Assembly (NCBI RefSeq): GCF_964355755.1
Contig: NC_092673.1
Location: forward strand, 1,245,001 to 1,309,000
DNA: 64,000 nt
From: Antedon mediterranea
Lineage: Eukaryota > Echinodermata > Crinoidea > Comatulida > Antedonidae
Direction of reading: 5' to 3'
Numbering within the stretch: position 1 is the stretch's first letter; each line of letters opens with the position of its first letter. A program made the position numbers and the translations under genes. Below are positions 36,300 to 60,700 of this stretch, piece after piece. Under the pieces are notes generated by a model. It was not told the origin of the DNA and made no database searches. It was given only the letters and a program-made list of their open reading frames with translations.

Positions 36300-38099
36300 T
36301 CATGGTTGCAGAGCAGACGTTTCAAACATGGTGTTAAGAGCTCGTACTTCAGGCGTCAAAGCCAGAGCCTCTGTGTTTGCCATCTTCACTGCTTCTTTAT
36401 AAACACCTCGTCTTTTCTTATCAAACCTAGACTTGTAATATTGAAGGAAAGGAAACAGTTTTTCGACGTTGATGTACGATATCGTGTTGGCCGCAAACCA
36501 CTTGATTAACGCTTCTTGGTTGACGACCGTCCCGTTGTCTTGTCGACTTACGTTCATTCTGACAACTCGTCCCGGCCACCACGGGAACCCAATAATCTTT
36601 CCCCATATGACATCACCTATACACATTATACGTCCGTCACCCAGAACAACCCGCGTGATATTCTTTTTATGAACGTTGACTTTGACGCGTGATGGAGTCT
36701 TTCCGTCCGATTTATCTGAATCAATTTCGATTTCTTCTACATCCGATTCCGAATCATCAGAATCGAAATCATAAACATTAACATTATGTGCAATTATTTT
36801 GCCATTTAATTTAAAGTTTGTACTTCCATTTCCGTTCATTTTCTTGGGTGCAGTTGTCAGAGTTCTATTTTCAATCGGTTTCTTTGAAGTTTCATCTGAA
36901 ATTGAGTTTTTACCTGTCAATTTTGTTGACACGATTTCCTTCTTTGTTGATTTTTTACAATTGTCTTTTATCAACCCATTTCGTTTTACAACTTTACCTA
37001 TATTTTTAGTCTTTGCCAATTTATTAACACCGCAAATGTTTTGTTTGTTATTCGGTTTTAGTTTTGTTGTTTTCTCATTTGCTTTTGACTTCGCTTTCTT
37101 TAAAACAGTTTTTGCTCGTTCTAATTTATTTTGCTTTGATGTTTTTACAGATGGACTTATTGGAAGGTTTACAATAATGTCCTTTTTCTCTTTCTTTGGT
37201 GCTGCATATGATATTTTTATTACTTGTTTTTCGCTACATATTGTATGCGTCTCTATACAGTCGCTTTTCTTCTTTTTATTTGCAGTAAAGTCATTATCGG
37301 TCTTGCGTTTCATAGGTTTTACAAGTTTCATTGGACTTGGAATGCCTTTCAAACTGTGTTTACAACGACTACACAAAATGTTTCGTGGACGTAACCTAAA
37401 AGGTCGCGTTCTTGTACTCATTCGTTGTTTCGGATCGCTGCTGCAGTTTCGTTTGGGAGACATTAAAAAAGGTCTTGGAGGTGGAAGAGGCAAGTTCTGA
37501 TGATACGTTTGTCTGTAGGCTAAAGTTGTGTGACCCTCAGTAGCTTTTGGAACGCTGGATTCTAGAGCTGATGTCATTGACTTCTCTTCATCACTTTGAG
37601 TAGCTGGATTGACTGGTGCTGTAATTGGTGGAGTCACTCCAATCGGACCACTGCTGGGACGTCAAAAGGAATATATTGTTAGAATACTATATATACAAAA
37701 TCACATAATAATATAATCAATCAATTCTGGATTTTCATTCATTTCACACTTAGTCTTACCAAACAAAGCTAGGCCTACCAATACCATAGGCTACACTCTA
37801 CTAGACAGGGAGGCGAGCACTACTAGCAGGCTAACTAGGCTAGCCTTCTACTGATGTACTAGCTATATACCAATAGCTAGGCCTACACGGTGTATATAGT
37901 GACACTCAAAACAGAATGACACAAAAAAAAAACAAATTAACTTTTTTGAATACCTTTTCAGTGCATCGATCAAAACACCCCGAAATACTCGATCTCCATG
38001 CCTCAGGCACACAACAAGAACATCATTTAATGAATCTTCAACTTCTGCAAGATATACTGTGCCTTTTTGTGGAGCTTGTTTATTGTCTTCGGTGGCCAT
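36300..38099 (-). CDS. PWWP2A: PWWP2A/PWWP2B orthologue, PWWP-domain chromatin reader, two exons
   Basis: Coding exons 38099-37954 and 37650-36300; the split Arg codon and phase 2 match (498 residues; human PWWP2A is ~755). Residues ~15-55 (LNDVLVVCLRHGDRVFRGVL) align with the conserved N-terminal block of PWWP2A/B, continuing across the intron into SGPIGVTP. Next come QTYHQNLPLPPPRP and a Cys pair in RPRNILCSRCKHSL (residues ~135-146), both typical of the family. A Lys-rich middle and an acidic run (~340-360) precede the C-terminal PWWP domain (residues ~391-478, GDVIWGKIIGFPWWPGRV). Vertebrate PWWP2A binds H2A.Z nucleosomes and H3K36-methylated chromatin and recruits MTA/HDAC subunits of NuRD. 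The 2A versus 2B assignment is not possible here. The invertebrate protein is shorter, mainly in the N-terminus and middle. Confidence 0.9.
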
Positions 38100-38239: not shown

Positions 38240-39281
38240 AAGGGTGCTATTGTAAATTTGATGGGGTATAGTGCTTTCGATAGCCTTTATTTGAATAATT
38301 AATCTGTATTAATTATTATAATATATAGTGCAGTATTAACAGTTTTATTTTTTCTAAATTTAAAATGTTTTTAATTTGGTTTTATGTCATTATAATGGCA
38401 TCCATAAAAAAAAACTTATCGTTTTTACGGTATTGTGTTTTTGTTCTTGACTTTTTATGTCTAAGTCCCAAGCATAAAGTCCTTTTCTTCGATGTTTTTA
38501 TTTAGCTAAACTTTTTCTTCTGTAATTTGTACAGCTGCTTTACAGCAAGCCCAGGATTGTGCTCATAGCCATTATCTACGCCACTGAACTGATGTTATTA
38601 AATGAGCTTTTAATAACTCTATTAAAGTAATTTAAGAAAAATTCTTAAGCACGAACATTTATTTCTTATTTTGGTAGGATAGGAGACAGTGCCTTTTTCA
38701 CTCAAGCTCCTGTGAATTTTGTTCCAGCAAACTCTCAAAGTGTTGGAAAACGGAGTGATGTAAATGGTTCCTCTGCTTCACTTTTGTGTGTGCTTAGAAA
38801 CATTGTATTAGGCACTATAAGACTACCATTATAATTATTTTATTAACATAAATACAAACAAATGTATACAACAATTGGAATTTTAACAAAAGTCTTGAGT
38901 AAAGGAATGTTATTTTATCGGAAAACAGCTGCGATTCACACACACTTCAAAAACACATTGAGAATTAGGGTTACATAACCAGGTCTATTGCATGCTATGT
39001 TTCTTTAAGATCTGTCTACACTATCAAACTAGTTTGATAAAAAAGTGTAATGTGTTAAATATGGTAGTGACATGACAAAATACGGTAGTGATATTACATC
39101 ATCATGTCCATAATATGGGCGCATCACATTTTTTTTGTCGCGTAAAGTTTGATAGTGTAGAGTGTAGACAGAGCTTTAGCGATTAGATGGATGATTTCAT
39201 TGGTATACTGTCATTGTCATTAATTGAAAGGAAAATTTCATTTTTCATATTATTCCTAAATCATTCCTTAAATTAAACATT
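38240..39281. other. Spacer between PWWP2A/B promoter and the 3' end of the ARM/SPRY gene
   Basis: AT-rich, no supported exon on either strand; contains MITE family A copy 13. A stretch near 38690-38760 repeats bits of the downstream gene's last exon in altered form (AGCAAACTCTCAAAGTGTTGG), perhaps a decayed duplicate. Confidence 0.35.
39006..39178. mobile_element. MITE family A, copy 13
   Basis: Left AGATCTGTCTACACTATC, right TAGTGTAGACAGAGCTTTA with a small extra GTAGA duplication near the right end. Just downstream of the ARM/SPRY gene 3' end. Confidence 0.8.
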
Positions 39282-39293
39282 TTTATTTTTATT
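39282..39293 (-). terminator. Two polyadenylation signals of the ARM/SPRY gene
   Basis: TTTATTTTTATT on the plus strand gives two adjacent AATAAA hexamers on the minus strand, 42-53 nt after the stop codon at 39337-39335; this implies a very short 3' UTR. Confidence 0.45.
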
Positions 39294-39334
39294 GAAATTT
39301 TTAGTTCTTATAAATCCTATTGTTTTCCCATTTG

Positions 39335-42300
39335 TCAGGACTCTATTTTGCCTTGCTGAAAATCATGCAGAAGTGCAGCCATTGATAGTCTCTGTTCCAA
39401 AGAGTTTGCTGGACTGTACAAGAACATCCTATTGCCAAAATTGAAGTCTAACAACTGGGTGTCTGTGATTGGAACAATTGGTGACACACCAACTTCTTCA
39501 TTAGCAAAGTAGAACAGTTTATCTGAAAATCAAAACAATTATTAAAGTAATCAATACATATTTTATAAACATATAAAAAAACATTTTCATCTTATGATGT
39601 TTATAACTTTTATTGATCACAATCGGCGTCTATAGGCATATTACAGGCCTATGCACATTGATCTTCCTGTATCCTTTGTCACGGGTAGCACTCAAGGCCC
39701 AACGCCCCACCCCTAAAAAAAATGAACTTTGTTAACGTCCAAACAATCGGCGGTTCCCACACCGAACACATGAGAGAAAATACTCATTCTGCCCAGGTGA
39801 TAAATGAATCTTACTTATTGAATGTCCATTGACGGTAAAGAATATTGTGCCGGCAGGAAGCTGTAAACCACATCCAATAGTTATATTACCATTACATCCA
39901 AACTAGAACATAAAAACAAATAAATTGTAAATATTTCATCACCAAAAACCTAGTACTGAAATACTGTTTCTTGGTAGGGTGAAGAAAATATCTTAAATGA
40001 AGGCTGTAATACCTGAATGTTAGTACCATCTGGTAACTGGAGACTACCATCAACACTGTAGATACCAGAAACTTGATCTGTACCTTCAATACTACTGTAT
40101 CCAACAGCAACCGATCTTAAAAAGAGGAAACAAATTGTAAAAAAAATAGTTTATATATAGATTGGCTATAGTGGGTGAACTCCTGATTGGGAGCACAGAG
40201 AAATTTTATAAACTAAATCGCAATAAAATGAATAATTTCTTGGTAAATTTCTAGCAATTTTGCATACGTAGTACTGTGTGATTGCATTGAAGGTGTGACT
40301 GGTGTATTAAAGTGGTTGATTCAAATGGCATACTGTTGGTTAATTCTCCATGAAGAATCACTTTTTAACTGCGATTACATTGGAGTCCACCCTCTAGCCA
40401 ATCAATATATAAACTCTTTGTTAAGAATGTCTGAATCACGTTTAATTTCTCACCACCGCCCATATGGCCCCACTCATCTCCATAGACTTACTTTGGTGAA
40501 TCTGCTGTCACTACTACTTCATAATATAATGAAGGGCTCTCATCAAGATGTCTGATTGGTTGATTTAAATCAGTGTTATCATCAACTGATTTCATTGGTT
40601 GTATTTCAATTCTGGAATCAAAATAAGGCGACGGCGAATCACAAGTGCTATCTGAAATCATCTTAGGTTGCAAGCGTTTCATACCACCATCATTTTTTGG
40701 TACCATTCTGTCTCCTCCTCCCCCCATCAAATACATACAATCCTCATTAAAAGTGTGATCTTCCTCATTTGTGATAATTGCCATTTCTTCTCCACCTCCA
40801 TTTACTCCTTCAATCAAAGTCTCATCTTCAAGGTCAATGTCGATCTCCTCCTCCTCCTCTTCTTGAAATGGAACCCACCATGACACTCCAGGAACGTCAT
40901 GATAACGAGATGAGAAGGTAACTGGTGTGGAGATAATTTCACGATATGCAACGTAACCAGGTGGCATAAGATTACCATATCTATGCAATAAATCAAAATT
41001 ACACAACCTTTATTTTATGCTACATAATTGGTGAAGTGAAATTTAACTAGGAGACAGCAGAGTGATGCTAACAGTATATAAATATTATACATAAATCAGA
41101 ATACTGTGTATACTGTATATATATATAAATCCAAAGGAAAATTACTGAAAAAATGACAATGTTGTGGGTATCAGTGGCTGGATCTCAATGGAGATACAAA
41201 AAAAAAGCAAAAACCTATTAAATCAAAATGATAAAGTAAAACAGCCAGTGCAAGTGATATAATATGAATTTTAAACAATTAATTTTTGAGCTGTGAATTA
41301 CATTAAAGATCACATTAAAGGTAATTCTACAACATCATTAGACAGATGCTAACAACATCTTTTGTGATTACCTGAATGGCTTGTCCCCAAAGTTGAAAGC
41401 AATTTGCTGATTTGTTGATAAGGAGCATGCTGGGTAAAAGGATCTTTTCAAATCTATATTCTTAAAAGCCACGCCCATATTGAGACCTCTCAGCCAATAG
41501 GAGACATTTCCATGCTTATCAATCAAACAACTAATGACGTCACTTTCTTTCCATTCCTTTCCATAATCATTGTTCTGAAATTATGATAATAATATCATCT
41601 TTATTTTTGTAATAAAAGTGGGAGTGGGGCAATCAAGTGGGTGGTGTACCCAAGGGTGATCCCCATAAGGAAAGGGAAGGGCCTTTTTGTGAAGAAAAAA
41701 AAACTCTCTGTAAATATCCTGGCTATGGGCTTGAGTTCTAATATTATTATAAAACAGTTACAGTTGTCTCCAACTTTTAATCAGATTTGTCTGTAACTGG
41801 TTTAATCTAGTTTCTATAGATTACGGTCGCCTTGTTGATATAATAAACCTTTCATCATTCACCTCATGCCATTATTTGTACCATTGCACTCATAAACATT
41901 CATTATTTGTATACTATTGTATTACCATTTGTTCTGTGATTGGCCCACTCCATATCTTACATCTGGCTCCATCAAAAGCATACGATTCAGTGTCATCTCC
42001 TACGCCCATCCCTACGAAATATAAATACTTTAACTGAAATGAAAACACTTTTTTTTTGTTGCTTTACAATTTACTGTAAACTCTGGACAAATAATAACAA
42101 TAATAATATCCTGGATTTATATAGCGCCTAATATTGTGAAACCTCTAAGCGCTGAATATTAGGCACATCACACCTTTTTTGTCAAACTAGTTTGATAGTG
42201 TAGACAGAGCCTTACCTTTTTCAGGTTCTAAAGAACATTGTCTGGTTGCCCAACCAATTTGTACTATTCCAGAAGAGTATAGTTCTACCTAAATAAATAA

Positions 42301-45300
42301 ATGTGACTGACTTAAATAAAAGCAAATTGGTTTCATATAATGCAGTACAAAGATTTACATTTAGATCTACTGTAATGATATTTAATAATTATAACAGGGT
42401 CCACTAATATATCCTGAAAATGAAAAAAATCAAATTGAATCATTAAATGGCTTGTTTGATTGTTTTATATTGTGATATAGTACAGTAATTATATTTGTGG
42501 ATTTAGGTCCATTTTAAAATCTAATTTCTTCATAGCATCAATGCTATTCTTTCCCCATGTTTCATCTTTTTTGAGGTTCAGTAGTAGTACATAATTACAT
42601 AAAGGAGGTCTTTTTCTGTCCTCAAAAATGAATTCAATAAAGTTCAATAATAGGTGGTTTTGTTGTCTCAATATAAAAACCTGAATAAATAAACTTATAT
42701 ACAACAATACAGTATACAGGGTAGCGTACCTCAAAGTACCATCCGATTGGTAAGTGTTTGCCTGCACTTGGTACAGAAATATTTCCAAGTATGCTTTCAA
42801 ATGTCCAGCTATCATTGCGAACATCCAATGCATTGCCACTACAAATCAACGCTGGTGTTTTAGTTGTCAAGTCTAATCGAACCGTACAGTTATCGCAATG
42901 AGTTAGTTCTACTGTTGACAATCGCGACAATGTTGAACAGATAGCAAGCTGTAGAAAAAACAAATTATAGTAGTACTATCTGAAATAATAATATGCAAAC
43001 AGGGTGATTAAATTAAACTGATTATGTATTTGAATTTAAAAAATATTTCAGTTTAAATTTGAAGATTTCCGAAAAATAAAAGATACAAAAGCTAAGATGC
43101 CTGAACAGAAGAAGAGAGTCATTCATATGTTTTCAGCTTTTTGTAGGTGCTAAGAATAAATACTGTACAATTGAAAACATACGCTGATAGATTTCTTCAA
43201 ATTGTCCCGACTCAGAAGTAACGCCCATATGAGATGTATTGCTCCCGTCTTAATTAACATCATCTGCACAACTTTAAACAATTCTAATAAAAAATTGTAT
43301 AAATAAACAAAATAGTAATACGATGCTTGTCAGTTTTATTTATTTATCGAGGGTAGTCTAAATAGTCTGAAGACCGGTTTCTATTGGAGTCATGCAAGGT
43401 GAAAGACCTTAAATTAATCATAGTTCTGCACTTTGTTAAGCTGTGTCGATTTTCCGCAGGGTGAGCACACAAGTTTGGGTTACTAGCCTCATCATCGGAC
43501 AACTCAACCGAATGTAGTTTATTTATTTAATTTTGGTTACAAGTATCATGAATTACCTTTATCCTGTACTGCAGCTAAATTAACCAGAAATTGTATGGAA
43601 TGTAGTGTTAACGAAGTGTAGACATCTGCATGCTCAATTTGAGCAAATCCTAAAAGAAAATGTAAATAAGTTTCATCTTCATCATTATGAGTTCCCACAA
43701 TCATCACAGAACTAGTCGGCATGGTGGCAGAATTCACAGCTGTTTTTGGGTTAAGTTTTAATTACAATCAACTGCATGATTACTGTGCCTAATCAATCTC
43801 AATAAGCTTTGGTTTAAAACTAAAGCTGGTAAATAAATATCCCATTATACATTTAAGTCTTATTCAAAATCCTTTCAGTTCCCTGTGGTATTTATTCTTA
43901 AACAGTCTACATTAATAAATGTGAACAGCTTTTAATATTGTATTATCACCTCCCATTACTTTAATGATGAAAAAAACAAAAACAAAAACTGTTCCGGCAC
44001 GGTTCTGGTCCTGCATGAATCTCCACACGGCTATGTGCCGATTGATATGCGCGTACCTGCATGAAAACAAAACATTAACGTTCGTTTTGACTTGCCAGCG
44101 CTGGACCGGAACCATGCCGGAACAGACGTGAAAGACCGTTAATATAATATGTATTTAATTAGCAATAGTGTAACATTTATGATGCTACAGTACCTCCTGG
44201 TAACTCTGACATCGTACTGTCGCCATAACCAACATTCTCAACAGTGCTAGCGCCACCAACATTAGCAACCGGTCTGAACGGTGTGCTGGTAGACACGGTT
44301 GATAATGCATCTTGGATACTGTCTATACTAATGCTGTCTGCTAGACTATCCTGCCGCGTTTCACAGAAATATCTAATTTATTCAAAGAAAAATGTGTGTA
44401 TATATAAAAGGCAAACATTTTTTAGGAGAGTTTTTTCTTTTTAATACCATAGATAAGTCCAAATCAGTGAAATGGGCTAGAGGTTAAGGCAGAGGCAACA
44501 ATATCAGCATGGGTTTGGGGGAGATTCTCTCTAGTTATGGTGGTGGAAGGACAATAAACCGTAGGCCCAGTGTACACAGTTATAACCTTTGTGCACTGAA
44601 ACCAGTTCATTATTTGAGACAACTAGGGAGAATTACACTGGTGAACTGGTTCACAAAATAGCCACTGTATCAGGGATATTACCATCTTCTGATAACACAG
44701 CAAGTGAATTATTTGCTATTGGTAATTATTGGACACATGTGCCTAAAGACATAAAATAAAAATAACAGAGATTTGGAAAACTTACAAACTGCTGGGTACA
44801 TTAGACTCATGTCCAGACCTGCTGAATGGTCTTGTGGATGCTAGACTCCCTTCCAGCGTAGCTTTAAGCCAGACACTAACAAGTTCATACAGCAAAGATG
44901 CAACTGCATTGACAGTATCATGTAAAAGCATTTTCTTACGATATACATCTGAAAATGAAATTGAATTGTACACAAATAAAATGGTCATATTAATATTATA
45001 GGAAACAAAGTTAGGTTATTGATTTAACCATTTCAGCCAAAGGTTACTCAGTAGTTGGACAAACATCATGATGGTTCTTTAAGCGATATTCTTTACATCA
45101 TAACAGATTTTGAATTAAACATTTCCTTACACTATACCCATTTGTATAGGATTTTCCACTGGCCAACATAGTGTAAATAAATGTTTAACCTTAAATACTT
45201 TCTTACTTTTAAAAACACAATATTAGATGAAAACATTAATAAAAACAAATACCATTGACAGACAAGACAACTAGAAGCTTCAGGGCACCAAGACAATGAG

Positions 45301-48300
45301 CTACTAAAACCGGTTCACCTTGGCTTTCATCAACACCCTTTTTTGAACAATACCTACAAAATAAATAAAAAGTAATCTTTGTTTAATACTACTTTTTGTT
45401 TACAGATCTCAAGCAAAGTTCACATACTGCAGCGTACATGTGTTATATACAGGTAACTCAAGTTTGATTTATCTAAAGCTCTGTCTACACTATCAAACTT
45501 TATGTGACAAAAAATGTGATGTGCCCATATATGGACATGATGATGTCATATCACTAACATATTTGAGCATATCACTACCATATTTGGGCACATCACACTT
45601 TTTTTGTCAAACTAGTTTGATAGTGTAGACAGAGCTTTAGGAGGAGTGGACCATCTGTGCATTAGTGTATGCATAGAGATATTATAGTTCACTATAATAA
45701 TTATCTCTATTGTGTATGAGAACTTTGAAATTGAAACAGTACTTACCAAATTGAAACAGTACTTACCAAATTGGAGAGCTTAAATGAGGAATCAATTGAT
45801 ACTGTAAAAGAACGTCAATGTAATAATCCGGTCTTGCTACAATCTCTACAAGTTCTAGACTGGACGCTCGGCTGATTGGACAGGTCAGCGGTAAGGACAG
45901 TAGCAGCTTCAACTCTGGATCCAATACTAATCTTATGACACGATTCTTTACAATGCGTTCTGCCAAATAAAAAACAAATTTGGATGATTAATAAGAATGA
46001 AAATTGGTATACTACAAGTTTAAGTGTCATTGCTAATTAGTTTAATGCTTAATGATGCTCTGATATTGTTAAAATAACATAGTATAAAACTGATTCCAAA
46101 TAACGAGAGGCAAGCCATGTTTTGATCTTTATTTGATCACTGTCTGTAAAATGAAATTAATAGCTTAAATGTATCACTTTGTTTGGTCGCATAAAGGTCA
46201 TTGAGTGGATCAATGACCAAATGACAAAATAATGACCCAAATTATTTACTGCATAAATGTTAAAATACTCCTGGTGTGGCCTTAATAAAACACAAGGACA
46301 CTAATTGTATTATAGCTATATTTGACATGGCAATGACAAATGAATCTATTCATCTATTCTATTTAAGGGTGGTTAAAGCTACATAATTCAAACCAGTTGA
46401 TAGTTTACCATATGGGAACTTTAATTGCAGATCTATCTCTTTGCAACTTTTACTAATATGCCAAACATCAAGTTTCTTGTCATCATCTAAAATGCTTACA
46501 ATCACACACATATGATCAACAGGAAGGCTCAAAAGATCAGAGGTTAATGTTCCAGTTACTGTGGTGTGCTCACTGAATTTCAAGGTTTCTTTCAAGTCTA
46601 TAAAACAGTACAACAATAATATAAGGCTTATTTTTCTTTGTTTTGAAGCAAAAATATTATTCATATTTATAATATAAAGACATAAATAAATAAAATCATT
46701 CATATTTAATTTAACATCTCTGTTAAATTAAACTTCATTTAATTTACGCCAGTTCATATCAAACTTATAGCAAGATAATAATGATGACTAACTAGTTTGA
46801 CAAAAAAAGTGTGATGTGCCTTAAAATATGGTAGTGATATACCCAAATATGGTAGTGATATATCATCATGTCCATATATGGGCAAATCACAATTTTTTGT
46901 CACATAAAGTTTGATAGTGTAGACAGAGCTTTACCTTTGAGAAGTCTTGGTCCAAATTCTCCTTTAATTATCATAAAAACAAGATTGCCAATAGCATTTG
47001 GTCCAGCTTCCTCCAAACAAGGTATCTTAATGGCGGTCATGTCATCAGACATGGTGTCAAGGTTGAAACTTTGATGAATTGATTGACAGCTATGCAATGT
47101 ATCCCACATCATAACACTGATCTATTAGAAAAAATATCAAATTTTAAACATAATTGAAGAGGTATGTAAACATTTTGTGCTTATGATATTTTGAAATAAT
47201 TGACTTAAAACAAAGTTACGATCATTTTTTTTTTTTACTTCTGAAGTTGTTTATGACTATAAAAGGTCACAAATAACTGTATTTGAAATCAGTTTCTAAA
47301 ACTTCCAGACATGGATGTTTGCACTGTAAGTGTATTCAGTTCTGAGAGAGAAAAATGCAAAAGAAACCAATTACAGTATAACATACCCCATGAGAGTTGA
47401 GGTTAAAATCTTTGTCAACAACACAGACTTTGGCAATATCAACGCCGCAATGAACTTTAATTGGGAGAGCACCCTCTAAAAAAAGAAAAAAATCAATATA
47501 TAAAATAAAACCTAAAATAATTGTAACAATAATTAGTGCTTTTTGATTTGATAATGGCTTATTACAAATACATGAACTAAAGCTCTGTCTTCACTATCAA
47601 ATTGTATGTGATGTGCCCATATATGGACATGATGATGTCATATCACTACCATATTTGGGAATATCACTACCATATTTGTGCACATCACACTTTTTTGTCG
47701 AACTAGTTTGATAGTTTAGACAGAGCTTAAAATAAAACATACCTACATATCCCATCATGACAAGAGTTTTGGCGGCCATTGTAGTCACCTGACTGTTGTC
47801 ATAGTCACCAAGTGCTAACTCCATTAAAGTGTGAAGACCACCAGCTTGCAGAATATACAACTTTACTTTATCTGTGAAAATCAGATAACTACACTTATTG
47901 ATCCATACTATTTTTTTAATAACTTAACATTTAACATTAAAACTGGACTTTTCACATCTGCAAAAAGTAACAACTTGTATCAAGTTGTAACCAGGTTTGC
48001 ATAGTGTGAAGACAATTTTGTGGAAAATCTCCCACAGGGGTCCCTTGAGAAAAACACACAGATGAGAGGTCTGTTTTTTTGTTCCGAGATGTCCCAAGTT
48101 GTTACTGCATGCGTGCATTTATTGCCCTGGTTTTAAACTGACCAATCATAGTAATCAAATAGTTCGCAATTTCTCCAGAGATTTTTCACGGTTCGCATAC
48201 GAAACGTGTAATAAATCAGGAGTTCAAAGCTGGTTGCAAGTTGTAACAATCTATGCAGATGTTAAAAATGGTATTACTACCTGAAGTCATGGCAAGGTTA

Positions 48301-51300
48301 AGCAGCAAGGCAGCAGACCAAAAGACCAGGTCAGGATCATGCATTTCAGAGAACTTTAAAATACCAACTAATGCACCAGCTTTTACTACACGTAAATGAA
48401 GACTTTCTGTACATAAAAATTGAAAATGGAAAAAAAAAAATCAATATTAACTGGCTTAATAAGTGTTCACATCTTTGTCTTGTCTGTTTTTAACATCTCC
48501 CTACGACCATAAGGCCTACACATGACTGACTTTGTAGTAGAACGAAAGAATTTAAATAGCTGGGTATTAACGAGACGATACCATGCTCTCCAAAAAATGA
48601 TGTACAGTAGTACTTTTCCAGAAATTCCAGTTTTATAAAATTTTTCACAATGTATAAAAAGAAAACTTTGATGTATTTTTTATGGGAAGAGTTGACTATA
48701 TAATTAAGATGGAAGATATAGCAGATCTTTAATGTTGATAAAAATACAGTAATGTTTAACAACATGGTTGCTAGCTAAAAGCAAGTTATTGAAATTAATA
48801 CAAATTATATTTATTGTAGAGCTTACCACACGAACAGAAGAATCCAAGCGTTTCAGCAAGGAGGCGCAGTTGAACAGTGTCGTCCGTCGTCCTTATGATG
48901 CTGATAAGTGATTCTATTATTTTATCATTGGTAAAATTAAGAAGGTTTTCCAGAGCTCTTCTACCTAAATTATTACAAATATTACTTTTGATATTTAAAA
49001 TGATTTGTAAACTAGATCAGCATTGCCAAACAAGTTGGTTTTGCATATTGCATAAATTACACTATATATAGTAAACAATACTAGACACACCCTTGGGCTG
49101 GTATAATATGTCTGGGTGGCTGTAAACACTAACGAATGTGTTTAAGGGCCCGTTTCTGCTGCCAACCCAAAATATACCGTATAAATATACCGTATAAATA
49201 TACCGTATAAATATACCGTATATGAAATTCGTGCACCGTTTCCGCTGCACATACTTCGTGGGTGGGTTGTAAAAAAGTTGGCTTTCATTACCCAAAATGC
49301 ATTTCGTGAGACGGAAGTATGGATTGACCTAGAGTCTCGTGTAGTGAGGTTACATGACAGCATTGCTTTCTATTTTAAATCTAATGAGCAGAAGTGGCAA
49401 CGAATTTACACCGCACATACAAGCACAATCTAGAAATGTCACTATAAATAAACTCTGTTATTCAAATTGAGTTTATATTATGCTATATTATCCTATATTG
49501 CCGTTTTAATTTCCATTTTCTATTATACAGTATTTTACCATGATTTTACATCACGTTGTTGTCGTGTAAGAACATTCGATTTATTGTAATTAAAATCTCG
49601 GTATCTCTTCTGTTGCCATGCAGTCTCCCCCCCCCAACCTTCGCTTCCCCCCACAATTGAATTGCAAAAATAGTGATTTGTTCGGTCCACAGTGACATTT
49701 TGATCTGTTGCTTGCTTTTACACGTGTGTTTCAACTTTCAATGCAGCAGAAAAACCAAAACAAACGCGTCGCGCTCTGTTAGTTTTTGACCTCGTGTCAC
49801 GAGTCGGGCCACATTTACGGTATATTTTGAGTGCAGCAGAAATGGGGTACGAAATATACGGTATATTTTGGAATATACCGTATAATATCCACAAACGATG
49901 GGGATATTTATACGGTATATATACCGCATATATATACGGTATATTTTTTATGAGACCCATTTCTGCTGCCAAAAAATATACCGTATATAAAATATACCGT
50001 ATATATACGGTATATTTTTGGCAGCAGAAACGGGGCCTTAATGTTAGGAAAAAAGTTGGAAACTTTTGACCTCAAGGAAAGAATTTCTGGTTTTCAGGGA
50101 CAGTCTGCTATTGGGAGAGTCGACTAATTTAATCATTTGTAGAATAGTACAGTAAAATAATGTTAGTTACAATAACTATTCAACACCGTACCGGTCATGG
50201 CGATACCATGCACCAAGTCAAGTGACCAATGCATCACTTCCTTTTCACCACTTGCAAGGCATGTTGGGATATGCTCAATCAAACCTGTCTGGTTTATCAA
50301 TAGCTGTTTGAACTTATCTGTCAAAATCAAAGAATTAAATAAGTTAAATAAATGAAATATGCTTGGGTTTTAACTGTAGTTTCTCATCATCATCATCATC
50401 ATCATGTTCAAATACATTAAATTTATTGCATGTAGTAATTTGGAAACATTTATATCTTTCAATTAACTTGTTATTAAATCAATTTCCGATTGTAAAGCTC
50501 TACACTATCAAACTATTTTCCAAAACCATTTTGCCCAAATATGGTAGTGATATGCCCAAATATGGTAGTGATATGCCCAAATATGGTAGTGGTATGCCCA
50601 AATATGGTAGTGATATCATCATTTCCATACATGGGCACATAACATTTTGTTGTCACATAAAGTTTGATAGTGTAGACAGAGCTTTAGACAGCTAGTGAAA
50701 AATTAATTTTTAAAACCAAAAAAGGAACTCTGCTTTAAAATACTTGGTTACCCAGATTTTCAGTTTTAATATATAGATTCAAAATAAGATTCAAGATAAC
50801 TTTATTGTCAAGATAACATAATTTGAAATTTGTCTTCATGAAAGAGCCTAAAGTTAAAAAAGTTATATTTAAATTTCCAGTATGTAATGTAATAGGAAAG
50901 AATTGGGAACTTGATTTAGGAGAATTGTATATTTACCATTATGAGCAGACAAGAAGCAGATAACCCTTAGAACAAGAAGCTGTACTGATGCCTCTCCACC
51001 TGTCTGGAGAGCTTTCTGTAAACTGTTTATCAAAAATGGTGTCTCACATATTTCATCATGCATGAAATCTGAAATAAAAGAGAAAAAGGATTTAGTTTAA
51101 GCATACAAATACAGTATAAACACTATAAAGGGAACACTTTTGGGACCACTTAATAGCAGTATCGTCTGAATAGGGTTGCTGTAGTGTTAAAACATATATT
51201 ACCCCACAATTGTTTCACACTAAAACGTTCCGTTAAAGCGTCCCCTTAAAAGGGCGTTCTACTGTAACTACAGATACAAATATCAAATTCATTGTTAAAA

Positions 51301-54300
51301 CAAAAAAATATACCAACTATAAAATGATCTTCAGTTTATGGATGCATAAGTACGGTAACAGATTAATGTTTATTTAAGAATGTGAAAAAAATGTTGATTA
51401 CCAGCAATAGAGAATTCATGAATAAGAGCTGCAGCCCAATAAACAAGCTCTGTGTCACCTGACTTCAGACATGTGACTGTCAGCATCAACATACCACTAT
51501 CAGCTATTTTTTGTAAACCCTTTTTGCTCTTTTCTTTCTCTGTAATGAAAAAGACAAATAATCAAATGAAGATTTGGCAATAAACGTGAGAGCATAACAT
51601 TGAGCCTCACTTAGAATTTACTCTTGTTATACTATTAGGGACTTTTAGATTTGAGTAATAAAAGTGAAGTTCAGGTCCACATAGGTCGTAGTGGATTATT
51701 ACTCGTCGACAGATATATGAACATTTAGATTATGTGGACATTTACGCTGACGTGCCAGTGAACGTATGATATAATGACCTTGGGATCATCTTGTAATCTC
51801 TAGTAGCATGCTCGTCTGTGCAGCTATTCCACAGATTCTGGTCCGACGGAAGTGTACGGCTTAGGCCAGGCTAAGTGTGTAGCTTAGTAGGCATAGCCTA
51901 GATCTTTAATTTTCTGAACAAAGGCTGGCTTCCTAGTGATAAGACCCATGTCATAACCTGTATTATCATAAGCTTTATTTAAAATAACCAATACAAATTA
52001 ATAATTTAGTGTGCAAATATAATTTCAATGCAGTAGTGAAAATGAAATTAATTTGTAAGCATAACGATACAAGAATAATGAAGAAAAAAGAAAAGAATGC
52101 TTCTAACAAACCTTGTTGTAGGTTATTGATAAAAATCACAAGAATTTGAAGGCATAATCTCTGAATAATATTATCACCATAGTTACACTGCATCATTGAT
52201 GCTACAACCTCCAACCCATTTTTTCCAATGATTTCCTCAACCAATGTTTCTGGAAAAAAATTGTTAAAATACTTAGAAACATTGTATAACCCTATATAAC
52301 ACTACCATTATTATTATACATTGTGGCTTATCTCCGTTTGTTGTCGTTTTACAGAAATATTTTTAAAAACATAAAACTTTGAAAGAATTTGATATTTCTT
52401 ACCATGTAAACTTAACTGATGAATAACAAATATAGAAAAGCGAATAACCTCCTTACATCTTGTATTCTGAAGAAGTTTTAGAAGAACTTCAATAAACAGT
52501 GGACATTCCTCAACTAATACATCTTTCTTGAAATCTAGTAAAACATCAAATTATTGTTGTTAGATTATTGGATAATTTGGCCAAGTCCTTACGATGGTTA
52601 ATATACATTTATGATTCTCAAATGGAAATTGAGCCATGTGGGACTACATCAGAATGGGAAATGTGGCTACCATTCACATTGAGACCAAAATTACTTCTTT
52701 AATATATATGTAAATTAGGGCTTGTTTATACAACACGCTAATTCAACATGGTTCTTGGTTGGGGTGTAGAATAAACGGAACAGAAAGAGATTACGTGTAA
52801 TTAAAAAACTACCTGGAAAGGATACTTAAAAAGGCTTCTCAAGGACCGGTAAAATTTGGCCGGGTGGTGAGCTGAAGTAGCCTTTTTAAGTTGCCCTCTG
52901 TATGTAATAAAGATGACCTAATTAATTTTCATGTATGAACGGCTATGTTTAGGGGATTACAACTTTGAAAGTGTCAAAACCATGCCTTCTTAAATATCAG
53001 ACTGATTTCTTAACCTTGCTCTATCATGCCTGTCTTTTCTTTCCAAAGTCAGAACTTGTTTTACCTGAATTACACGCGAAATCAAAGATGGCTGCTAGTG
53101 TCATACGTTGAATTCGCTCACACGTCGCTTGATGGTCTGCCTGCCATTTGTTAATGTTGGAGCGTGGTTGTAAAGACCGAAGCAAACAATAGCCAAGTGT
53201 TTGTACAACCTGACGGTCTAAATTAAGATATCTACAGTCAACTAGAGAAAAAAACATATTTAATATGAGAATCATTATAAGAAGTTTTTTTAAATTTATT
53301 TATTCAGGTTTATATAGTAAAAAACATGCAGCACGAAGGCTGAAATTGTTGATTTACAAATATATATATATGGAAACACAAATATTTGGATGTAACTGTA
53401 ATGGCCCCGTGTTCTCAGTTAAATGTTTCAATCAAACCACAGCTAATGTATCAGTGATGTTGTAGCGTAGTACCCTGTGTCAAAGGAAGCTTGACTAATG
53501 TAGCAAGATACTACAAAAAATAAGTACTGTAATCATATAGCCTAGTGAGCTTTTGCATCAAGACAAAATACGAAATGAGACGGTAAATTAGAGTATGAAG
53601 TGATTTCCATTCTATTGTTAAATGTATTTGCTTTCAAGACAAAAACTTACGATGGTAAGCCTTTTCCTAGGCCTAGCTAACAGACAGGCGGGCATGTTTA
53701 AGAACGTTCTGTGGCTTTAGGTCAGAGTGAATGTCAGTCGCAACAATCAACAGAACGAAGCATACTGGGCTTACACTGTACGCATGCGCAGCATTTTAAT
53801 CGTTTTAAAATTACTGTCACATTTTGTTTCCGTCGCGATGAGGAAGCTCATATTTCTATGTCATAATTCAGCTGTGGTTTAAAAAAATAGTGGTGGTATC
53901 TAGCAGTAACAAATAGTTTTTTGAGGCTCTTACAAAATGTTTTCTTCTTTGATATAACACAATAAAGTAATTATACAGCACTTACTACTTTTAAGAATAA
54001 CACAAAGAACAGTGCATCCTTTGTGAGCACGCTCACTGTCTGAACTGTAGCATTCTTTGAGTACATAGCAAAACTGTGACTCTAAATAAAGAAAAGTAAA
54101 TTAATGTAACTCAGACAGCATTACGACAAGGTCCTGACGAGACGAGTCGTCTTGATATGGCGTCAGGCGTAATATTTAGGTCGTTGAGAAAACTGTAAAA
54201 AAAAAAATTTAGAGACTAAGGAACATGAGTGGCATAACATTGTCTGCCACCAGTGTGCGAAATTTGGAAATGTATCAAAAAAGTTTATCTTGTTTGTGGT

Positions 54301-55785
54301 TAATATGGTAATACACACCAAGGATAGCCCACCAAGTCTGTAGACTTATTTCTGGTTAGGTTCCTCTGGTGGTAAATTCAGCAGTGCACTAGGAGACAGT
54401 CCCTACCCCTTACTCATTTTCGAAGAGTGTACTGCATTCTTTAAGTTGCACTATATATGGGACCAACAGGATTCGATTTAGTGGACCAGAGGAAACGTAT
54501 GGTATTTCACAGTTCAGCGCACAACAAGGCGGCTACCACCACCGCTTTAGCCAACTGTATATTATCATGGAGGATATATTTGTATAATTTACACTTTATA
54601 CAGTACTTGTAGGGCTTGGTTATAATCTATAGGACTTGGTATTTAGGAGGACCCTGCATAAGATGAGGCAAGTTCTAAACCCTCCTGGACCCTTACTTTG
54701 AGTTATTCTATCCAGAAGCAGTTGCTCAGCACTTCTTCTTAGACTTGCATTCGGAGATCTTGTGAGCACCGAAAGATCATCAATACTGATCTCTGGAACA
54801 ACAAACAAATAAAACGTTAGACGCGTGATTTAATGATTTGTACAATTTGTTGGTGTTCAAGAATCTTACCTAGGCCTATGTTCTGTGTTATTTTGTGTTC
54901 ACCTCTCAGGTATTGAATTGTACATTTTGCAAGACAATACTTGAGCAAATTCAAATTACAAAGACAATTTTTAGAATTCTCACAGGCACATATATAAAAA
55001 TATACTAGAAAAATATATAAATAATAAATATCTTAAAATGTTTGTCTAGAGATACAGTACTGTATCCATACTTCTAAAAACTAAAAGGTACAGCAGTAAT
55101 TATCCATACTCACTGCACAATATGAATAAGGCGTATACTATAATGATACAAGGATAATAATAATATGGTATAGGCCTATAATTATCTGAATCTGAATGTT
55201 TGACACCACTATAAAAAAATAATGGAACAGTCCTGCTTTCAATACACGCCAAAAACTCAGGTTGATTCTAATAATAAAATATTAAATTAACGCTCTGTCT
55301 GCTAATCCAATTCATTTTACTAATAAGTAGGCCTTACGTTACCTAGTAGTAGTAGACCGCCTACTCTGGGGCCAAGCCTACTACCTAGGGCCTGCCTACT
55401 TACTAGGCTAGCAAGACTTATCTAGTCTGGGTGGCCTAGGCCCTAGTAGGCTAGTCCTAGGAGGCGTACTACTAGCCTACTGTACTATGATTAGGCATAC
55501 CTATGTACTGTTTGTATCATTCGACATTATGTAGCCTAGGCCTAGCCTAAACTGACCATTTTCGATGCGATCTTCAATTTTGCGAGACTTTTTTAACCTG
55601 TTGAGAACATAGCGTATATTATACAATATAAATGATGCACTTCCAGCAACTATCAAGGTACTACCTATAACAAAAAACACATTGTTCTTCGGTATATGAA
55701 TCATGGTGTTGTGGGTGGGGGACCACCATGTTTTTGTGATTTGTTGTTGAAATGTTTTGTAAAGTATGGCGCGCCAAGCTGTCAT
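39335..55785 (-). CDS. Membrane-anchored ARM-repeat protein with two SPRY(-like) domains, 29 coding exons; family not recognised
   Basis: Exons from 5': 55785-55557, 54792-54697, 54081-53986, 53241-53065, 52534-52403, 52249-52112, 51539-51402, 51068-50937, 50317-50192, 48964-48827, 48406-48281, 47871-47743, 47475-47387, 47121-46935, 46597-46409, 45959-45767, 45353-45253, 44948-44786, 44372-44194, 43739-43557, 43271-43183, 42948-42730, 42288-42216, 42011-41926, 41574-41372, 40980-40492, 40115-40013, 39902-39815, 39522-39335. All phases match (1,492 residues). Residues 36-56 form one membrane segment (VFFVIGSTLIVAGSASFILYN) followed by basic residues. Residues ~77-552 are ARM/HEAT-like helical repeats (LTRSPNASLRRSAEQLLLDR). 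SPRY 1 is ~1040-1203 (VQIGWATR, YAFDGARCKIW, YGKEWKESDVISCLID, FNFGDKPF). An acidic linker (QEEEEEEIDIDLEDE) precedes a divergent second SPRY (~1355-1475; IFFTVNGHSI, LDFNFGNRMFLY). Function unknown; a membrane-tethered interaction scaffold is inferred. Confidence 0.85.
41110..41255. repeat. Dispersed repeat related to 29037-29215
   Basis: AAATCCAAAGGAAAATTACTG, GGATCTCAATGGAGATACAA and AAGTAAAACAGCCAG match the element at 29037. In the ARM/SPRY intron between exons 25 and 26. Confidence 0.6.
42089..42160. repeat. Interspersed SINE-like repeat fragment
   Basis: TATCCTGGATTTATATAGCG and GAAACCTCTAAGCGCTGAAT are shared with the repeat at 14721. It joins directly to MITE copy 14 in the small intron between exons 23 and 24. 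Confidence 0.6.
42161..42213. mobile_element. MITE family A, copy 14 (one end only), abutting a 5' splice site
   Basis: Only the right half remains: GGCACATCACACC, then CAAACTAGTTTGATAGTGTA and GACAGAGCCTTA. Its terminal TTA forms, on the minus strand, the GTAAGG donor of exon 42288-42216. Confidence 0.75.
45474..45639. mobile_element. MITE family A, copy 15 (near-intact)
   Basis: Left TAAAGCTCTGTCTACACTAT, right ATAGTGTAGACAGAGCTTTA; core with two minus-orientation units. Flanking TA on both sides is consistent with a TA target. A good reference copy. In the intron between exons 16 and 17. Confidence 0.85.
45731..45770 (-). repeat. 20-bp tandem duplication that doubles a 5' splice site
   Basis: TTGAAACAGTACTTACCAAA occurs twice in a row. 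Each copy contains a GTAAGT donor on the minus strand. Use of the exon-proximal one (exon ends 45767) keeps the frame; the second would add 20 nt and shift it. Confidence 0.85.
46790..46933. mobile_element. MITE family A, copy 16, abutting a 5' splice site
   Basis: Left end degenerate (ACTAACTAGTTTGACAAAAA), right end TAGTGTAGACAGAGCTTTA. On the minus strand the element starts TAAAGCTCTG directly after exon base 46935 and one G, giving the donor GTAAAG. Confidence 0.8.
47578..47729. mobile_element. MITE family A, copy 17
   Basis: Left TAAAGCTCTGTCTTCACT, right GATAGTTTAGACAGAGCTTA. Ends 14 bp from exon 47871-47743, near its donor but not overlapping. Confidence 0.8.
49146..50037. mobile_element. 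TTAA-flanked ~0.9-kb element with inverted repeats
   Basis: Left end GGGCCCGTTTCTGCTGCCAA matches the inverted right end (TTGGCAGCAGAAACGGGGCC). TTAA is on both sides (49142-49145, 50038-50041), the target of piggyBac-type elements. Both arms carry many AATATACCGTATA units, and the interior repeats GCAGCAGAAA-like motifs. No transposase ORF: non-autonomous. In the ARM/SPRY intron between exons 9 and 10. Confidence 0.75.
50493..50686. mobile_element. MITE family A, copy 18 with four internal units
   Basis: Left TAAAGCTCTACACTATCAAA, right ATAGTGTAGACAGAGCTTTA; TGCCCAAATATGGTAGTGATA repeats four times. In the intron between exons 8 and 9. Confidence 0.85.
53776..53788. promoter_or_regulatory. 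NRF-1-like site inside an ARM/SPRY intron
   Basis: GTACGCATGCGCA matches the sequence seen ahead of PWWP2A/B (GTACGCATGCGCA at ~38221). It lies in intron 3 of the ARM/SPRY gene within a locally CpG-richer stretch (CGTCGCGATGAGG at ~53832), suggesting a possible internal promoter. Confidence 0.25.
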
Positions 55786-57032
55786 TTATTCGGAAATAAA
55801 GATATCTTAGTTTAAAATTTGGTGTGCCATATGAATAAAAAAAAATGAATCATCTTTATTTGGGTCATGTACATTGACCAGCGTAAAATTCTTCTTCTAT
55901 AATAAAAAAAAATCTACCATGTTCATTACGGCTCCCTGCACTATTTGTTTTAACATGATTTAAAATAGATTTTAGACCCCCACTCTTCCACCAGTAATGT
56001 TCACAGCTTACGTCAATGTGGCGTTTCTTGTGAAGAAAAATGATATTATGATCATTTTTCCATCCATTAAAAGTCTCCTATTTTGTTTGATTGTCTTAAT
56101 CCCCGTACGTTTAAGGAACATACAGTATGAATATTGGTAGGCCTATTATCATTAAGGTTGGTAATGCTTCTCGATTTTAAATTGCAGAATGAACATTCGT
56201 TTATAATAACATTATGTAAATATTATTTTAAACGTTATTTTGAACGTTCTTATAACGTTAAGTAAATGTTATAAATAACGTTATGTAAATAACATATTTT
56301 GAATTATTCTAAACGTTCTTATAACGTTAGTTAGATGTTATCAATAGCGTTATGTAAATTATTTTATCGTTATTTTGAACGTTCATAAAACGTTAGGTAA
56401 ATGTTATCAATAGGCCTAATAATAAGGCTTTGTAAATAACAATGTTATTCAGAACGTTCTTATAACGTTCAAATGATATTATGAAAAAACATTCTCTGAA
56501 TGAACATTGTTTGAATGTTATACGAACGTTCATAGTGAACCTACTAGACGCTGTAACCAAAATTAACGTTAGCTGAACGTTACGTGTTTGCTGGGAAGTA
56601 TACCGTAGTTAATGTTTTAAATCATGATCATGTGTAGTTTTACGACTACGACTCATTTTACAGCCTATGACGGCAAAATGCACATTTATCACTGATTTTA
56701 GGCTCTGAAAACAATTATATCGAAAAACTTGGTTGTCTGACGCGATAAATGCACACACTACTACAATGTCCATGTATGACCACCACCGCGACGCGATCAT
56801 CCTACACTGTCGCGCGGCTTATTGTCAACTCGTGCCGCCGCCTTGCGCGTCTATCGTTTTTTATGCGCTGCATCTCTCAATTGAGAACCTTTAGATATTT
56901 ATATCACGTCCTTATTATGATGAAATGCATGTTTGCCTTGTATTTGGAAACCAAGCTTTGCGTAGCAGTCTAGTAAATGAATATGTTTGCGTTTTATACA
57001 GTATAACAGTTGTAATCCATGATGAAGCCAAC
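55786..57032. other. Spacer between CHT gene 3' end region and the ARM/SPRY gene start
   Basis: Promoter side of the ARM/SPRY gene. A degenerate ~55-60-bp repeat built on AACGTTCTTATAACGTTA fills 56205-56580. A CpG-rich stretch (CCACCGCGACGCGATCATCC, CGTGCCGCCGCCTTGCGCG) lies at 56780-56860. No supported exon. Confidence 0.4.
56205..56580. repeat. Degenerate tandem repeat of AACGTT motifs
   Basis: Repeated GAACGTTCTTATAACGTTA and GTAAATAAC blocks at roughly 55-60 bp spacing, each locally palindromic around AACGTT. Diverged; not coding. Confidence 0.7.
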
Positions 57033-57755: not shown

Positions 57756-60700
57756 TCATTCATTATTAGTTAGCATAGATAACCCCACATCAACAGTAAG
57801 ACCATTTTGCGTTTTGAAAGCGTTTTTCCTCTCATCTTCTTCAGATGGAATGTTTGTCACACATTTTAACAGATCCCATTTCTTATCTAAAATATTATTA
57901 GTAAATAAATAATGAAATAGAGCCGATACGACACACAGCGTTGTTAGTGAAACGAGCATCGCAAATGTCCGGAACGGAAATAATTGCTCGCCATTTTCAT
58001 AAAACGGGTATTCTATAAAAGGTTTAAGGCCCAAAAGCGGTTCACCGCCCCCAAGTCGCAGTATCAGCCCGAGAAAATAACCAACAAGCACACCGTACGT
58101 ATTCGAGAAACTGACATACACTACGCAGACGAGTTGAGGGAAAAGTACGACGTATACGAAATCGGAACACAGATAGAAGAGTCCATAAATTGAATCAATT
58201 GTTATTGCTAAAGTACTGGCGATAGTTCCTGAAACCAGAATTGAGCATCTCATAACCCATATGATTTCTCTTTCACTTGCCTTGAAATAGAAAAAAAAAT
58301 ACAATAAGTAAAATTTATTAACAAAAAACAACTTGGTTCCCTTATTCGCAACTCTCGGACGTGTAGACGCAACGTGAGCGAATTGACCAATGACAAGTGA
58401 CAGTTCGAATAATCCATGGCTTGTGATTGGTCAACTCACTTACGTTGCTTTATGTCCTTTTGCTGCTTCTATAGTCGAAACCAAATATAGTTTGTGTAAA
58501 TAATGTGTTCTACAATTTAAAAGAATACAAATATAATTACATTTGGTCTTATTATACGTTTGTATACATTTCTAGCGAACATCGAACTTGTTGAAAGTAG
58601 TGACGAATCGGCTGATGACATCACAGCGGCGCAGACAGCTCCAAGACCGATGATGGAGACAACTTGAGGAGTCAGGTATTGTAGCACTAGAGGAAGTACA
58701 ATGTTGCTGTCTGTGATTTCTTGGCCATACGCGGTCTCATTCCAATCTATACAGCAAACAAGATTTTAAGATAATTAAGTAAATATTTCCTTAAAAGGTT
58801 TTCCATAAGCTTGGTTCCCACTAGCGACGCAACATAAAGGACGTATTGAAGCAAAGTTCTTTATTGCGTAATAACAAGTGGCAACCGACGACGCAACAGT
58901 GCTGCAAACATCGCAGATTTTAATTGATGCAGGTGGGGACAAATAGAATTATTGGAAGGGCATTTTCTAGGTTGCGTACGTTGCGTAGTGGGAACCACGC
59001 TTTATGGTACTAGTTTTAGTTATATCACGGTTTTATCCATAAATGTACTTACTAGTACTAGCTCCAATGGCGCCCATGAGAAACGATGGAATTGTCATAA
59101 TCATGCATCCCGCGGCACCAGCAAACGACAAAATTCGTGCATAACGAGGGGTTTTGGCAGACAAAACACGTTGAAAATACGCCTGCCATGGTACTCCACC
59201 TAGACTCTGAAAATTAAAGCAATTGAGAAAAATAATGAACAATCCTCCAGTGGCAAAACTAGGCCTATAGGAATGTTATTAGCAATGATATTAATCGATT
59301 ATGAAAATGAATCTTTAAACAATGACTATAACAACAGGCGGTGGTGTGGTTTGATTTTATCTGATCCAATCAACCAAGAAGTATAACATGGCCAAAACAA
59401 CTAAAATTTCATATGCATATATGCTGAAAACATCTGTTAACTATAGTTTACAAAGAAGTTATCCGACGTACCAACAGCAAAACACCCTCGATCCAGACAC
59501 CAGTATATTTGTTCTCCCAGGTGCCAAACCAATTCGTCTCTGTGATACTCGTAACATGCTCGTTTGTCATAGCAAATGGAATCGCCAACCACTAAAAATA
59601 CACAAACAAAATAATTCAGACAATTGTAAAGTTATCAAAGTAAGTTAAACTGGAGCAAGATACAGATGCAGATTAAGCCTAAAGCTTTGTTCCAACTAGG
59701 ACGCAACGGAAGGATTTAAACGCAAAGCAAGCGTGTTGATGACCAATGGCAAGTGACAGTTCGAATAATCCATAGCTTGTGATTGGTCAACTCACTTACG
59801 TTGCGTTACGTCCTTGTGCTGCGTCTCTAGTGGGAACCAAGCATGGACTGGAGGACGACAGCTATTATTTATATAAGCTCAGCGTTGTCTTCCATTTTTA
59901 CAAATAAATATGACATTTAAAATAACATTTCAATTCACGTACCAATCCGAAAAATATACAACTTAACTGGAGGACATCAGTATAGGCCACTGAATAAAGT
60001 CCTCCAAAGAGAGTGTAAGACATGGCAATACACGTTGATACGATTATAGCAAGCGTTTTGTCGATACCAAGTATTACACTGAATGTTGAACCTGCAAAAT
60101 ATACGTCATATATATTGAAAGAAAGAACATGTATTCATTAACCATACTTAAGTGAGATATTTCCCTTAAATACTAGGTATTAAACTTAAGTAAATATTTA
60201 AGGATTTCCCAATTAAGTCTTGTTCAGAAAGTGAACGACTACTAGCGGAATTGTAGTCCTAAGATACATTTCACACTTTTAAAATTTTCAGGAATTATAA
60301 AATAAAAGATTACGATATTTACTGTATAAAAGTCAATGTTGGAACTCACCAAGTGCTGCTAGAATGGCGCTTGACCAAAATATTTCTCCAGAATAAGCTG
60401 CCAAAAACATGAGTACACCTACTCGGTCGCCATACTTAATCTGGTATGGATCTAACATGGTTACGTAACGTTGCTTTCTTAGATGGGTAGCAAAGAACAG
60501 TCCATCTTAAAAGACAAGAAATAATAATTATTATCTACAGCTATAATTATTACACCATGCCTATATTTGACTAGTCTAAGTTCTAAAATGTGTTTTGACA
60601 TATACTTCATATATGTATAATTACGGAAGCCCGTTCGGGCCACAAGTTAACTATTATTTTAAAAGCTGTTATGTGGCGGCCGCCACTTAATTATCTGGCG

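What the first reader, a model, noticed from the sequence alone, without database searches (positions are those of the whole stretch)
39335..55785. Large membrane-anchored ARM-repeat / dual-SPRY protein I cannot assign to a family
Twenty-nine phase-consistent exons give a 1,492-residue protein: one N-terminal membrane helix with a basic flank (the layout of signal-anchored ARMC10/ARMCX-type proteins), a long ARM/HEAT-like array, a canonical SPRY domain, an acidic linker and a second, divergent SPRY. I know of no named vertebrate protein with this exact order. RSPRY1 shares an ARM-like plus SPRY layout but is shorter and ends in a RING, absent here. A tethered scaffold that presents SPRY ligand pockets would be a new type of adaptor.
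Basis: partly seen in the sequence, partly recalled or inferred. Interest (0 to 1): 0.75.

Follow-up and report, generated by a model that had tools for sequence, protein, structure and literature searches.

The report
Unnamed membrane-anchored ARM–dual-SPRY animal gene
The window holds a real, single-copy animal gene that joins an armadillo-repeat array to two SPRY protein-binding domains, probably behind one membrane anchor; the parts are familiar, the combination matches no named family I could test, and its function is unproven.

Summary
Two SPRY domains pass Pfam's cut-off (whole protein E=1.1e-27; SPRY2 alone 1e-7). Residues about 200–553 are an ARM array with one repeat per phase-1 exon (best PDB matches: designed ARM proteins, Vac8, beta-catenin). 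Three caveats: residues 553–1014 match no known fold, so the array is shorter than claimed; the membrane anchor rests on exon 1, which has weak coding support; no transcript data were available. The gene is single-copy in a 354-Mb genome. RSPRY1, RyR and other SPRY genes lie elsewhere in that genome, so it is not one of them. SPRY1 most resembles the RNF123/KPC1 type (43% identity, against a sequence recalled from memory), then RSPRY1 and RyR. No RING, CTLH/CRA, HECT, lipase or Arm_2 domain was found. Best reading: a membrane-tethered, non-enzymatic scaffold, a new arrangement of known modules. I could not search eukaryotic proteomes; unnamed orthologues in other invertebrates are likely and could not be checked.

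The parts
55557..55785 (-). Exon 1 (aa 1-77): N-terminus with hydrophobic helix at about aa 36-54 and basic flank; alternative start M28 at 55704
   Evidence: Hydropathy maximum 2.2 and no acidic residue before position 71; best first-exon candidate in 2.4 kb by donor score, but weak coding score
53065..54792 (-). Exons 2-4 (aa 77-200): helical lead-in, probably N-terminal part of the solenoid
   Evidence: Phase 1-1 exons of length divisible by 3; no clear domain match of their own, the weak ARM-type Pfam hits lie just after them
47743..52534 (-). Exons 5-12 (aa 200-553): ARM array, one repeat per phase-1 exon of 126-138 nt
   Evidence: phmmer to designed ARM, Vac8, beta-catenin; Pfam Arm 0.001, just under cut-off; alternate exons alike, e.g. 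7 and 9 z 9.4
43183..47475 (-). Exons 13-21 (aa 553-1014): middle region, no recognisable fold, with Ser/Thr-rich stretches
   Evidence: No significant PDB or Pfam match; coding-like codon use
42730..42948 (-). Exon 22 (aa 1015-1087): joins the end of the middle region to the first strands of SPRY1 in one open frame
   Evidence: Continuous frame; SPRY match starts at aa 1084
41372..42288 (-). Exons 23-25: body of SPRY1 (match aa 1084-1204)
   Evidence: Pfam SPRY; PDB RyR SPRY domains up to 5.8e-28; RNF123-type by pairwise comparison
40492..40980 (-). Exon 26 (489 nt, aa 1208-1371): end of SPRY1, acidic linker, first strand of SPRY2 in one exon
   Evidence: Single open frame; 33 D/E and 10 K/R in aa 1225-1375
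39335..40115 (-). Exons 27-29: body of SPRY2 and C-terminus
   Evidence: Pfam SPRY 1e-7; PDB RanBP10 5.8e-6
39282..39293 (-). Two AATAAA poly-A signals just after the stop codon

Best explanation
This is one protein-coding gene for a large, probably membrane-tethered, non-enzymatic scaffold. The N-terminal helix would fix the protein to a membrane with the rest facing the cytosol. The ARM solenoid would hold one partner. SPRY1 would read a short peptide motif on a second partner, and SPRY2, joined by an acidic linker, would be a degenerate or second docking face. With no RING or other catalytic domain, it would bring clients to a partner enzyme or complex rather than act itself. Shown: the gene structure, the two SPRY domains, the ARM array, single copy. 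Inferred: membrane side and organelle, partners, adaptor role.
For: 29-exon model with consistent phases and GT-AG splice sites. SPRY domains. ARM array. Codon use coding-like in all regions apart from a few exons. One exon spans the start of SPRY1 and one spans SPRY1-linker-SPRY2, so the SPRY half is one unit. No RING-like motif on this strand from 57700 to 37000 and no other Pfam domain over cut-off. Hydrophobic helix with basic flank near the N-terminus.
Against: No RNA evidence. Exon 1, the only source of the anchor, has a codon score no better than many open intron stretches (182 of 794 null windows reach it), and about 6% of ATG-started ORFs in this window have as strong a hydrophobic stretch (4 of 64). 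The middle third has no known fold. Partner binding is untested.
Confidence: 0.5

Rival explanations
1. The same gene encodes a soluble cytosolic scaffold: exon 1 is a mis-assigned ORF and the true first exon lies further upstream without a membrane helix.
For: Exon 1 has the lowest codon score of all 29 exons, a donor of 6.1 bits (the other exons range from 4.5 to 11.3) and a poor start context; ORFs in this window reach the same hydropathy about 6% of the time.
Against: It is the best candidate in the 2.4 kb upstream of exon 2, in phase, with a basic flank and no acidic residue before position 71. Exon 2 itself has no start codon, so some upstream exon is needed.
Confidence: 0.25
2. A relative of the RNF123/KPC1 ubiquitin ligase that has lost its RING and gained an ARM half, acting in the same pathway as a substrate receptor or competitor.
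Against: RNF123/KPC1 has an N-terminal SPRY and a C-terminal RING (PMC7802972); here the SPRY lies C-terminal and there is no RING. No RNF123 body was found in the genome, but that search had no positive control.
Confidence: 0.15
3. Two neighbouring genes (an ARM protein and a SPRY protein) wrongly chained into one model.
For: The middle region has no homology, and AATAAA hexamers occur in intron 20.
Against: Phases chain without a break through exons 12-22, middle exons show coding-like codon use, and no stop interrupts the chain. Introns throughout are of ordinary size (110-1227 nt).
Confidence: 0.08

Closest known systems
RNF123/KPC1 SPRY domain
   Same: SPRY1 about 43% identical over the domain, including GVGD..SYA/FDG, YGK.W...D..SCLID and FNFG..P.RY (human sequence recalled from memory)
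   Different: RNF123 has its SPRY at the N-terminus and a C-terminal RING; I know of no ARM array or second SPRY in it
RSPRY1
   Same: Helical (ARM-like) part followed by the same broad type of SPRY; 32% identity in SPRY to the RSPRY1 of this very genome
   Different: 576 aa, described as secreted, with a RING (PMC11817781); its orthologue is at G000:C8:8.386-8.390 Mb
Ryanodine receptor SPRY domains
   Same: Best solved-structure matches to SPRY1 (5.8e-28)
   Different: RyR is a channel of about 5,000 aa with a C-terminal pore; its gene is at C10:20.76-20.78 Mb
RanBP9/RanBP10 (CTLH complex)
   Same: Best solved-structure match to SPRY2 (5.8e-6)
   Different: No LisH, CTLH or CRA domain here; a RanBP9-like gene is at C8:10.98 Mb
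ARMC10/ARMCX and other anchored ARM proteins
   Same: Single N-terminal hydrophobic helix with basic flank before an ARM array (layout only)
   Different: No Pfam Arm_2 match; no SPRY mentioned in the ARMC review PMC8666550
Vac8
   Same: ARM array sequence similarity (2.8e-9)
   Different: No SPRY in Vac8; anchored by lipid (own knowledge)

Membership tests
RSPRY1 | C-terminal RING finger | tested here: not met
   No RING in Pfam scan; only one CxxC in the protein; no RING-like pattern on the strand
RSPRY1 | Being the orthologue in this genome | tested here: not met
RNF123/KPC1 | RNF123-type SPRY | tested here: inconclusive
   Closest of the SPRY types compared, but the human sequence was recalled, not fetched
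RNF123/KPC1 | C-terminal RING and KPC-type body after an N-terminal SPRY | tested here: not met
   No RING; the ARM array lies before the SPRY
Ryanodine receptor | Pore region and RyR-specific domains | tested here: not met
   Only SPRY over cut-off in Pfam; RyR gene found elsewhere
RanBP9/CTLH | LisH-CTLH-CRA | tested here: not met
   No such Pfam match
ARMC10/ARMCX | Arm_2 domain (PF04826) | tested here: not met
   Absent from Pfam lists up to E=10
ARMC10/ARMCX | N-terminal signal anchor | tested here: inconclusive
   Helix predicted, exon 1 weakly supported
SPRY-domain protein (superfamily) | SPRY domain over curated cut-off | tested here: met
   97 bits whole protein, 32.5 bits for SPRY2 alone, cut-off 26.3
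ARM-repeat protein (superfamily) | Tandem repeats of about 42 aa with ARM similarity | tested here: met
   Matches to solved ARM proteins down to 1.9e-10; Pfam Arm itself just below cut-off (19.5 vs 20.6 bits)
Any characterised full-length family | Full-length match in eukaryotic proteomes | not testable with these tools
   No eukaryotic protein collection; viral and prokaryote scans with SPRY1 gave nothing

The most novel reading that the evidence does not exclude
An uncharacterised animal protein family, lost or never present in vertebrates, in which a membrane-anchored ARM solenoid presents two unlike SPRY domains: a tethered substrate receptor built from an RNF123-type SPRY without a ligase domain.
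Probability: 0.3. Interest if true: 0.5.

Novelty: new variant of a known kind. Interest (0 to 1): 0.35.

Why it matters
If the architecture is real and conserved, it would be a ligase-free SPRY reader fixed to a membrane, a way of placing SPRY-based recognition at an organelle surface that none of the named SPRY families compared here offers. At present it is a well-supported but uncharacterised gene made of known modules.

Tried and rejected
An extra exon at 54192-54117 was rejected: out of phase. RSPRY1, RyR, RanBP9, DDX1, ASH2L, FBXO45 and SPSB identities were rejected because each has its own locus elsewhere; except for RSPRY1, these names were assigned by eye from the translated pieces. 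Viral and prokaryotic relatives of SPRY1: none. RNF123 orthologue elsewhere in the genome: not found with two body segments, but without a positive control. Literature searches for ARM+SPRY proteins gave no such family. The idea that a transposon created splice donors in this gene was tested and not supported. An attempt to name the organism from contig C17 failed: the stretch read is not mitochondrial. Leave-one-out profile scoring of the ARM exons gave no usable scores.

Full report
Gene model. I translated the minus strand of 38800-56800 in all frames, read the sequence, and chained exons by hand from splice signals. The result has 29 exons from 55785 to 39335, every intron GT-AG, phases consistent throughout, 4,491 nt, 1,496 aa and one stop at the end. 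For 26 of the 29 exons only one frame is open, and it is the required one; the other three have one further open frame. A further splice-flanked segment (54192-54117) does not fit the phase and is dispensable.

Is it coding? A codon model trained on homology-supported exons (4-12, 22-29) against the introns scores the held-out exons 0.09 bits per codon. Open windows of intron average -0.23. Base composition by codon position is nearly the same in both exon sets. Exons 1, 3, 21, 23, 25 and 28 score weakly on their own; of these, 23, 25 and 28 are backed by SPRY homology. Two AATAAA signals lie about 40 bases after the stop.

Domains. Pfam finds SPRY twice at 1.1e-27 for the whole protein, and SPRY2 alone passes the cut-off (32.5 bits). 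The nearest solved structures to SPRY1 are ryanodine receptor SPRY domains, and to SPRY2 RanBP10/RanBP9. The ARM half matches designed ARM proteins, Vac8 and beta-catenin. Exons 2-12 are all phase 1-1 with lengths divisible by three, and exons 5-12 carry one repeat each. Alternate exons resemble each other most: 7 and 9 (z 9.4), 7 and 11 (5.1), against values near or below 2 for most neighbouring exons; 5 and 9 also score 5.2. The array may have grown by duplicating exon pairs (inference). Residues 553-1014 have no significant match, so the claim of one long array up to the SPRY is not established.

Membrane anchor. The strongest hydrophobic stretch is aa 36-54, with no acidic residue before position 71 and a basic flank. 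A start at M28 would put the helix close to the N-terminus, as in ARMC10-type anchors; it has an A at -3, whereas M1 has T (read from the sequence). Exon 1 is the best available first exon by donor score, but its codon score is weak and such hydropathy occurs in 4 of 64 ATG-started ORFs of this window. I treat the anchor as likely but unproven.

One gene or two. Exon 26 holds the end of SPRY1, the acidic linker and the start of SPRY2. Exon 22 holds the segment before SPRY1 and its first strands. The frames chain without a break through the middle exons, which show coding-like codon use. This favours one transcript, but only RNA can prove it.

Which family? The window gene is the only locus found in its 354-Mb genome with the protein as query, although only the best candidates are scored. 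The genome's RSPRY1 orthologue is on another contig, and loci that I recognise as RyR, RanBP9, DDX1, ASH2L, FBXO45 and SPSB from their translations lie elsewhere. In direct comparison SPRY1 scores z 56 with RNF123, 33 with the local RSPRY1, 31 with RyR2 SPRY2 from the PDB alignment and 16 with the local RyR SPRY1. The RNF123 sequence was recalled, so this is a strong lead and not a formal placement. RNF123/KPC1 has SPRY at the N-terminus and RING at the C-terminus (PMC7802972), so the window protein is not a member by architecture.

Function. SPRY and ARM are both protein-binding folds, and no catalytic domain was found. The most economical mechanism is a tethered scaffold: ARM holds one partner, SPRY1 reads a peptide on another, and SPRY2 is divergent and may bind or only support. 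Which membrane and which partners is unknown.

Novelty. The human SPRY proteins I can list from memory include none with this order, and a review of ARMC proteins never mentions SPRY (PMC8666550). Eukaryotic proteomes could not be searched; uncharacterised orthologues in other invertebrates are likely. I therefore rate it a new variant of known kinds, of moderate interest.

Noticed in passing
whole window, e.g. 45476-45637, 46931, 42212: A very common short inverted-repeat transposon (ends AAGCTCTGTCTACACTATCAAACT, mostly TA flanks); 24 ends occur in 64 kb. In two introns of this gene (after exons 14 and 23) it starts exactly at the splice donor. Genome-wide the donor-like context AGGTA is rarer than AGCTA (18 vs 53 exact matches), so creation of introns by the element is not supported.
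   Followed up: partly
36300-37661 (-): Open frame with a PWWP domain (1.5e-12), probably a PWWP2-type chromatin protein, next downstream of the gene.
   Followed up: partly
57756-58430 (-): Frame resembling the C-terminal part of a high-affinity choline transporter ([16 protein letters not shown] motif, from memory); no Pfam match to this fragment.
   Followed up: no
14858-15466 (+): Short tandem repeat read as LVIQIQACYPDTSLLSRYK in the open frames; a minisatellite, not a gene.
   Followed up: no
49140-50040: Intron 9 holds palindromic ATATACCGTATA-rich repeats, probably another transposable element.
   Followed up: no
20126-21508 (+): 460-aa serine-rich, acidic open frame with tandem HHSHSQSHQNSQDLDTIS repeats; no Pfam match.
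   Followed up: no
L081 (G000:C17:1-5000): Small contig C17 encodes a receptor-type tyrosine phosphatase-like stretch (recognised from memory), not mitochondrial DNA.
   Followed up: no
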